From NCBI RefSeq assembly GCF_012843435.1, contig NZ_JABAFC010000013.1, positions 1 to 64,000 of the forward strand: DNA of 64,000 nucleotides, given 5' to 3'. Positions 1 through 27,926 of this stretch are shown here, one piece after another. Position 1 is the first letter of the stretch. Every line of letters begins with the position of its first letter. This DNA is from Psychrobacillus sp. BL-248-WT-3. Its GTDB lineage: Bacteria; Bacillota; Bacilli; Bacillales_A; Planococcaceae. Under the pieces are notes generated by a model. The model saw only the letters and a list, made by a program, of their open reading frames with translations. It did not search any database and was not told the DNA's origin. The translations under genes were made by a program, and so were the position numbers.

Positions 1-96
1 TCCCCTTAACGGATAAAGTAAGTATGTGTTTAGAATAAAGATAGTAATACATTTACACAAAATATTTTACATTCCCCAACTCTTTGCCACATTACT

Positions 97-470
97 GCAA
101 CACTTCTCTCCATTCGCGCAACACTTGCCCTATTTCCCGCAACTCTTTTATTTCCCGCAATACTTCCTCCCGTTCACGCAACACTTTGCCCCATTTCCGC
201 AACACTTCACTCCATTGGCGCAACACTTACCTCATTTCCCGCAACGCTTTTATTTCCCGCAATACTTCTCCTCATTCGCGCAACACTTTGCCCCGTTTCT
301 GTAACACTTCACCCCTTTGGCGCAACACTTACCCTATTTCCCGCAACACTTTTATTTCCCGCAATACTTCTTCTCGTTAGTGCAACACTTTGCCCCATTA
401 CTGCAACACTTCACTCATTTGGCGCAACACTTACCACATTTCCCGCAACTCTTTTATTCCCGCAACACCC
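97..470. repeat. Higher-order tandem array of GCAACACTT boxes (array 1)
   Basis: Nineteen boxes related to GCAACACTT start at 97, 118, 139, 157, 178, 199, 220, 241, 259, 280, 301, 322, 343, 361, 382, 403, 424, 445 and 462. Steps are 21 nt except every fifth, which is 18 nt (the last is 17), so the array is a 102-bp superunit repeated about three and a half times. Each box in the superunit has its own following sequence (for example TTTGCCCCATT or ACTTACC), conserved between superunits. All steps but the last are multiples of three, so all forward frames give low-complexity open frames; I do not regard them as genes. The array lies just beyond the eno terminator. A related array is at 27636. 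Function unknown. Confidence 0.9.
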
Positions 471-494
471 ACGTTTCTTGCAAGCTTCTCACCA

Positions 495-533
495 CAAAAA
501 AACTCCTCAACACAAATGTGTTAAGGAGTTTTC
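495..533 (-). terminator. Terminator of the glycolytic operon
   Basis: Read on the minus strand, AAAACTCCTTAACACA pairs with TGTGTTGAGGAGTTTT across a very short loop and is followed by a run of T. It lies just after the eno stop codon and closes the cggR-to-eno operon. Confidence 0.85.
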
Positions 534-541
534 ACTAATCA

Positions 542-3370
<2,829 letters not shown>

Positions 3371-27635: not shown

Positions 27636-27926
27636 GCAACACTTTTAAATTTGGCGCAACACTTCTACCCGTTTCCGCAACACTTTAATTTCGTGCAACA
27701 CTTAACTCGTTTTCCGCAACACTTTTGTATTTGGCGCAACACTTAACTCGTTTTCCGCAACACTTTTGTATTTCGCGCAACACTTCTACCCGTTTCTGCA
27801 ACACTTTAATTTCGTGCAACACTTAACTCGATTTCCGCAACACTTTGGATTTTAGTGCAACACTTAATCCGTTTTCCGCAATACTTTTGAATTTGGCGCA
27901 ACACTTTCTATTTTGACGCAACACTT
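27636..27926. repeat. Array of GCAACACTT boxes (array 2)
   Basis: Fifteen boxes of GCAACACTT or close variants start at 27636, 27656, 27677, 27695, 27716, 27736, 27757, 27777, 27798, 27816, 27837, 27857, 27878, 27898 and 27918. Steps are 20 or 21 nt with an 18-nt step twice (27677-27695 and 27798-27816), giving a superunit of about 121 bp. Box type and linker words (TTTCCGCAACACTT, TTGGCGCAACACTT) match array 1. Because steps are not multiples of three, no protein can explain the array. It lies upstream of the hisZ promoter. Confidence 0.9.

What the first reader, a model, noticed from the sequence alone, without database searches (positions are those of the whole stretch)
97..470. 102-bp higher-order DNA repeat built from 21-bp boxes
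Nineteen GCAACACTT-type boxes lie 21 nt apart with an 18-nt step after every fifth box, giving a 102-bp superunit. A 21-bp step is two helical turns, so boxes face the same side of DNA. This suggests a protein-binding array, a nucleoid or partition site, or a repeat that grows by recombination. I know no named family with this layout.
Basis: partly seen in the sequence, partly recalled or inferred. Interest (0 to 1): 0.7.

Follow-up and report, generated by a model that had tools for sequence, protein, structure and literature searches.

The report
Lineage-specific 21-bp DNA box arrays
The repeat beside the enolase gene belongs to a large class of noncoding DNA arrays in Psychrobacillus and related genera, in which a short word of about 9 letters recurs every two turns of the helix, usually just past transcription terminators; the word differs between species while the layout stays the same, which points to an unidentified DNA-binding factor.

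Summary
The array is real: 20 GCAACACTT-like boxes at window 76-470, steps 21/18 bp, 102-bp superunit. A second array lies at 27636-27926. The draft genome holds at least 10, a closed genome of the same species 11. The organism is a Psychrobacillus.

It is not an ordinary minisatellite. Boxes are nearly invariant, spacers nearly random, and boxes diverge 3-5 times slower than spacers even when unit pairs are chosen for similar spacers. Other Psychrobacillus species carry genome-wide arrays with different boxes (TTAGTTGKAA, GCAAGTAA) at the same 21-bp step. So do three further genera with TAATAGMCA, and still other boxes sit behind eno. Arrays usually start 10-100 bp beyond an intrinsic terminator. 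They are not consistently coding, not RNA-structured, and not found in phage or plasmid collections.

Most likely each is a head-to-tail platform for an unidentified, lineage-specific DNA-binding protein, perhaps a post-terminator boundary or roadblock. Binding is inferred from selection; the protein and function are unknown. I found no named family or paper describing it.

The parts
76..470 (+). Array 1: 20 head-to-tail GCAACACTT-type boxes, steps 21/18 bp, three full 102-bp superunits, downstream of eno
157..258 (+). one 102-bp superunit (five boxes; steps 21,21,21,21,18)
494..530 (-). intrinsic terminator of eno (stem 501-514 / 517-530, T-tract at 494-500 read on the minus strand), between eno and array 1
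   Evidence: read from the sequence; terminator positions in general
542..1837 (-). eno (enolase), whose 3' end faces array 1
27636..27926 (+). Array 2: 15 boxes, 14 of them exact GCAACACTT, steps 18/20/21 bp, 121-bp superunit, in the divergent region between hisZ and a small ORF

Best explanation
Each array is a DNA-level, head-to-tail platform for a sequence-specific DNA-binding factor that has not been identified. In this genome the recognised unit is about 14 bp: a T five bases before the box, then YGCAACACTT. Units recur every 21 bp (two helical turns; less often 20 or 18), so bound subunits would mostly line up on one face and could assemble cooperatively. Arrays sit mainly in intergenic DNA just beyond intrinsic terminators of housekeeping genes, so the likeliest role is a chromosomal boundary: a bound block that stops read-through or antisense transcription, or holds a topological or nucleoid domain, at the ends of transcription units. 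The box word is specific to a lineage, as expected if the factor's specificity drifted and all sites followed. Shown: the arrays, their step, box-only conservation, slower box divergence, position beyond terminators, different boxes in different lineages. Inferred: protein binding and cooperativity. Guessed: the boundary role.
For: Unit profiles of three box families show 1.2-2 bits at every box position (1.5 or more at nearly all) and about 0-0.4 bits over most of the spacer; 21-bp steps are 174/242, 78/78 and 171/204 of all steps. The T at -5 is kept in 18-step spacers too. In orthologous arrays, boxes diverge 2.1% against 12.5% in spacers within the species and 5.3% against 27.9% between species, in unit pairs selected for at least 55% spacer identity; the gap stays significant at 75%. 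Between species boxes diverge 9.0% against 19.6% in flanks that include coding DNA. The same layout with other boxes occurs in the genus and in other genera. 52 of 77 gene ends facing an array have a terminator before the array, mostly within 10-100 bp of the first box. At eno, arrays occur in 10 of 19 Psychrobacillus and 7 of 29 other genomes.
Against: No partner protein was found and none of the neighbour genes is an obvious one. Steps of 18 bp do not keep the helical face. Some arrays, such as array 2, lie in divergent promoter regions. In 14 of 77 cases a terminator was found only beyond the array. The function of arrays at the ends of unrelated genes is untested.
Confidence: 0.5

Rival explanations
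1. A selfish or neutral interspersed satellite: arrays tolerated in safe DNA beyond terminators, grown by slippage and recombination, with the box kept because some trans-acting recombination or replication factor uses it, and no benefit to the cell.
For: Location beyond terminators is where insertions do least harm; box numbers at a locus vary (20 versus 14, 15 versus 19); large superunits occur in G130; arrays sit beside unrelated genes.
Against: Four of the five G126 arrays stand at loci that also hold arrays in G135, so positions are old. Boxes are under stronger constraint than flanks. Spacers at different loci share no register, so there is no sign of recent copying between loci. Recurrence behind eno in seven genera with different boxes is hard to explain by neutrality.
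Confidence: 0.2
2. An RNA element: boxes in read-through or independent transcripts bind an RNA-binding protein or small RNA (a sponge or 3'-end signal).
For: Asymmetric boxes, placement at gene ends, and moderate co-orientation with flanking genes in the TTAGTTGGAA and GCAAGTAA families.
Against: Mostly outside the terminated transcript; GCAACACTT boxes show no fixed orientation to genes; no structure on either strand (z +0.7 and +0.8); no Rfam match; a 21-bp pitch has no obvious meaning in RNA.
Confidence: 0.13
3. Iteron- or parS-like sites: chromosomal arrays bound by a replication or partition protein that couples them.
For: Direct repeats of about 21 bp, often four to six boxes per array, resemble plasmid iterons (general knowledge); depletion from the terminal quarter of the replichores, 3 of 43 arrays.
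Against: 10 to dozens of scattered loci, no rep or par gene next to arrays, none found near the origin in G135 (nearest 0.67 Mb), no plasmid match.
Confidence: 0.07
4. Protein-coding repeats: 21 nt as seven-residue repeats of a small coiled-coil protein.
For: Array 1 is open in one frame.
Against: Steps of 20 bp break the frame, 8 of 21 arrays have no open frame in any of six, other families have 20-bp steps too, and GCAAGTAA carries a stop codon in one frame.
Confidence: 0.02

Closest known systems
REP/BIME elements of enterobacteria and pseudomonads
   Same: Dispersed, intergenic, in regularly spaced sets, described as binding sites for host proteins (PMC2817692 abstract); placement at gene 3' ends is from general knowledge
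   Different: REPs are palindromes in alternating orientation; here boxes are asymmetric, strictly head to tail, 21 bp apart, with no hairpin potential
TAACTGA direct repeats of Beggiatoaceae, Cyanobacteria and Bacteroidetes (PMC4679880)
   Same: Short asymmetric word repeated in intergenic arrays at many loci, protein binding proposed, no confirmed function
   Different: Direct heptamer repeats, in Beggiatoaceae mostly just upstream of start codons; here 9-bp boxes with random 9-12 bp spacers beyond terminators, and the word changes with lineage
Plasmid iterons and incompatibility arrays
   Same: Direct repeats near 21 bp, several per array (general knowledge)
   Different: Iterons lie with a rep gene on one replicon; here there are tens of chromosomal loci and no initiator gene
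CRISPR arrays
   Same: Constant repeats with variable spacers
   Different: 9-bp repeats, 9-12 bp spacers, no cas genes noted beside arrays, no phage relation
Minisatellites/VNTRs
   Same: Tandem, copy number varies between genomes of one species
   Different: In a minisatellite the whole unit is conserved; here only the box is

Membership tests
REP/BIME | palindromic unit able to form a hairpin | tested here: not met
   boxes are asymmetric; folding of both strands no better than shuffles
REP/BIME | dispersed in intergenic regions, often at gene 3' ends | tested here: met
TAACTGA-type heptamer repeats | TAACTGA direct repeats, mostly just upstream of start codons in Beggiatoaceae | tested here: not met
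   different words, spacers of 9-12 bp, location mainly after terminators; definition from PMC4679880
CRISPR array | repeats of about 20-40 bp with spacers of similar length next to cas genes | tested here: not met
   9-bp boxes with 9-12 bp spacers; neighbours listed look like housekeeping genes, read by eye
Iteron replication origin | array beside a replication initiator gene on one replicon | tested here: not met
   10-11 or more scattered chromosomal loci, neighbours are other genes; no plasmid match
Minisatellite/VNTR | whole repeat unit conserved along the array | tested here: not met
   spacers near random between loci, box divergence 3-5 times lower than spacer divergence; superunits show partial whole-unit duplication
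Known RNA family | match to an Rfam model at gathering score | tested here: not met
   only a tRNA in the window
Protein-binding site array | a protein that binds the box | not testable with these tools
   inferred from conservation only

The most novel reading that the evidence does not exclude
A chromosome-wide boundary or organising system in this family of Bacilli, made of cooperative arrays on a fixed 21-bp pitch whose recognition word is rewritten as a whole, site by site, when the cognate protein changes specificity, so that related species use the same architecture with different 'alphabets' at some of the same loci (such as behind eno).
Probability: 0.3. Interest if true: 0.9.

Novelty: new variant of a known kind. 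Interest (0 to 1): 0.7.

Why it matters
If the arrays bind a host protein, a whole bacterial family has a chromosomal element with constant architecture and rapidly changing sequence, placed at the ends of transcription units. It would offer a natural series for asking how a DNA-binding protein and dozens of its sites change specificity together, and may reveal a boundary or topology system outside the enterobacterial models. At the least it may explain short repetitive hypothetical ORFs that such arrays can create.

Tried and rejected
Coding repeat: rejected, 8 of 21 arrays have no open frame. RNA structure: none. Rfam: nothing. Phage or plasmid origin: no blastn match; three-box or pair patterns in viral contigs gave no comparable array, only coding repeats, near-identical-unit repeats or isolated pairs. 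Scan of GTDB contigs with the exact box pair: mostly isolated pairs; the multi-copy cases inspected are whole-unit repeats (Photobacterium L063, L082, L057), and Bacillus horikoshii L100 is a lone pair. Polar replication signal for GCAACACTT: no bias, 5 of 11 arrays co-directional in G135 (origin). Common ancestral superunit anchored on the 18-bp step: spacers in register are no more alike between loci than out of register (0.396 versus 0.398, permutation p 0.81). Partner gene next to arrays: none recognised. Exact GCAACACTT pairs were found in only 3 of 261 family genomes, which first suggested a narrow family, until the eno loci showed other boxes. The eno region of G128 and G139 has no tandem array; their genomes were not scanned for unknown boxes.

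Full report
OBSERVATION. Twenty GCAACACTT-like boxes lie at window 76-470 with steps of 21 and 18 bp and a 102-bp superunit. The genome has 107 exact boxes against 13 for the reversed word, and 52 close pairs against 0. A second array, 27636-27926, was missed. The window starts at base 1 of contig C5, but the array is not an edge artefact: the closed chromosome of another genome of the same species, G135, has it behind eno too, with 14 boxes.

ORGANISM. Contig G126:C11 (969,009 bases) matches NZ_JACSQO010000001.1 of Psychrobacillus faecigallinarum in length and box position, and G126 is in the window's genus, so the window is a Psychrobacillus.

ARRAYS IN THIS SPECIES. The draft genome has at least ten arrays and G135 eleven. 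All boxes in an array point the same way. Between arrays the spacers differ while the box stays. In 159 distinct 21-bp units the box carries 1.5-2 bits per position. The preceding base is C or T, and a T five bases before the box is 94% conserved. That T keeps its distance to the following box in 18-bp steps too (17 of 18 spacers, by reading the list), so the recognised unit seems to be about 14 bp with an elastic gap in front of it. Steps of one box interval are 21 (174), 20 (26), 18 (25) and 19 (1).

CONSTRAINT. In orthologous arrays, boxes differ at 5.6% and spacers at 18.9% within the species, and at 9.0% and 31.8% between species, where flanks (partly coding) differ at 19.6%. Misaligned units could inflate the spacer figure, so I repeated the test with unit pairs selected for similar spacers, which works against a difference. 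Boxes still differ less: 2.1% versus 12.5% and 5.3% versus 27.9% at 55% spacer identity, 2.1% versus 6.7% (p 0.001) and 5.6% versus 17.5% (p 0.01) at 75%. Duplication alone cannot keep the box and lose the spacer, so the box is selected.

OTHER BOXES, SAME LAYOUT. The region behind eno in other species showed arrays with other words. Genome-wide, TTAGTTGKAA pairs occur in 11 of 19 Psychrobacillus genomes (up to 77 pairs) and GCAAGTAA pairs in 5 (up to 216), with 0 or 1 in reversed controls. Steps in the sampled arrays are 21 in 78 of 78 and 171 of 204 cases. A scan for periodic 7-mers behind eno, with 0 groups in shuffled sequence, found arrays in 10 of 19 Psychrobacillus genomes and 7 of 29 genomes of other genera (six genera), plus one behind a partial eno copy in an eighth genome; boxes include CGCAAATA, AAAGTGTCTAAT, TATTAGAC, GCAATATGG, TAATAGMCA and AAAGTGATC, with 20-21 bp steps. 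TAATAGMCA arrays are genome-wide in three other genera (G018, G059, G160).

POSITION. Arrays are intergenic. Of 77 gene ends facing an array, 52 have an intrinsic terminator before the array, 14 only beyond it, 11 none detected; from terminator stem to first box is typically 10-100 bp. Divergent placement is uncommon: 8 of 90 sampled arrays with both flanks known, not corrected for several arrays at one locus. Flanking genes are unrelated, mostly housekeeping genes. Four of five G126 array loci are shared with G135, so positions are old. Two loci, eno and the valS/yheCD-type locus, carry different box families in different species. Three of 43 arrays lie in the terminal quarter of the replichores (binomial p 0.002; a post hoc cut), which may only reflect where core genes lie.

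WHAT IT IS NOT. Not coding, not an RNA structure, not an Rfam family, no plasmid or phage match, not REP/BIME, CRISPR, iteron origin or simple minisatellite (membership table). The nearest published analogue found is the TAACTGA repeats of PMC4679880, which differ in word, spacing and position.

MECHANISM. Selection on a box of about 9-14 bp, constant two-turn spacing, strict head-to-tail order and placement outside transcripts fit a DNA-binding factor that assembles on arrays. Exact boxes outside arrays are not far above the control (my count, where the list is cut at 100), so arrays rather than single sites seem to matter. The boundary or roadblock role is a guess from position. The change of word between lineages would follow from drift in the factor's specificity, or from replacement of one array family by another; both TTAGTTGKAA and GCAAGTAA arrays exist in G125 and G131, and a second family follows the first behind eno in G135, so replacement is possible.

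NOVELTY. I found no name or description, but only open-access papers were searchable, and subscription papers were not. I label it a new variant of the broad kind 'dispersed intergenic repeat arrays', failing the defining features of every named family tested.

Noticed in passing
L188 (G135, eno downstream) 3190-3284: A second 21-bp array with a different box (AACCTTGC-type, five boxes) follows the GCAACACTT array; its genome-wide extent was not tested.
   Followed up: no
G133 and G136 chromosomes: TTAGTTGGAA and GCAAGTAA boxes run with the replication fork in 9 of 10 and 17 of 22 arrays by my count; confounded with gene direction and absent for GCAACACTT in G135.
   Followed up: partly
L341-L343 (G130): Very large arrays with higher-order repeats of roughly 160-230 bp containing five or six boxes each.
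   Followed up: no
L063 2390-2680 (Photobacterium piscicola): GCAACACTTGGTTGAGGC 18-bp repeat with the whole unit conserved, apparently a hexapeptide-type coding repeat; unrelated to this class.
   Followed up: partly
window 1-96: The contig of the draft assembly starts 75 bp before array 1; that flank looks unlike the corresponding region of G135.
   Followed up: no
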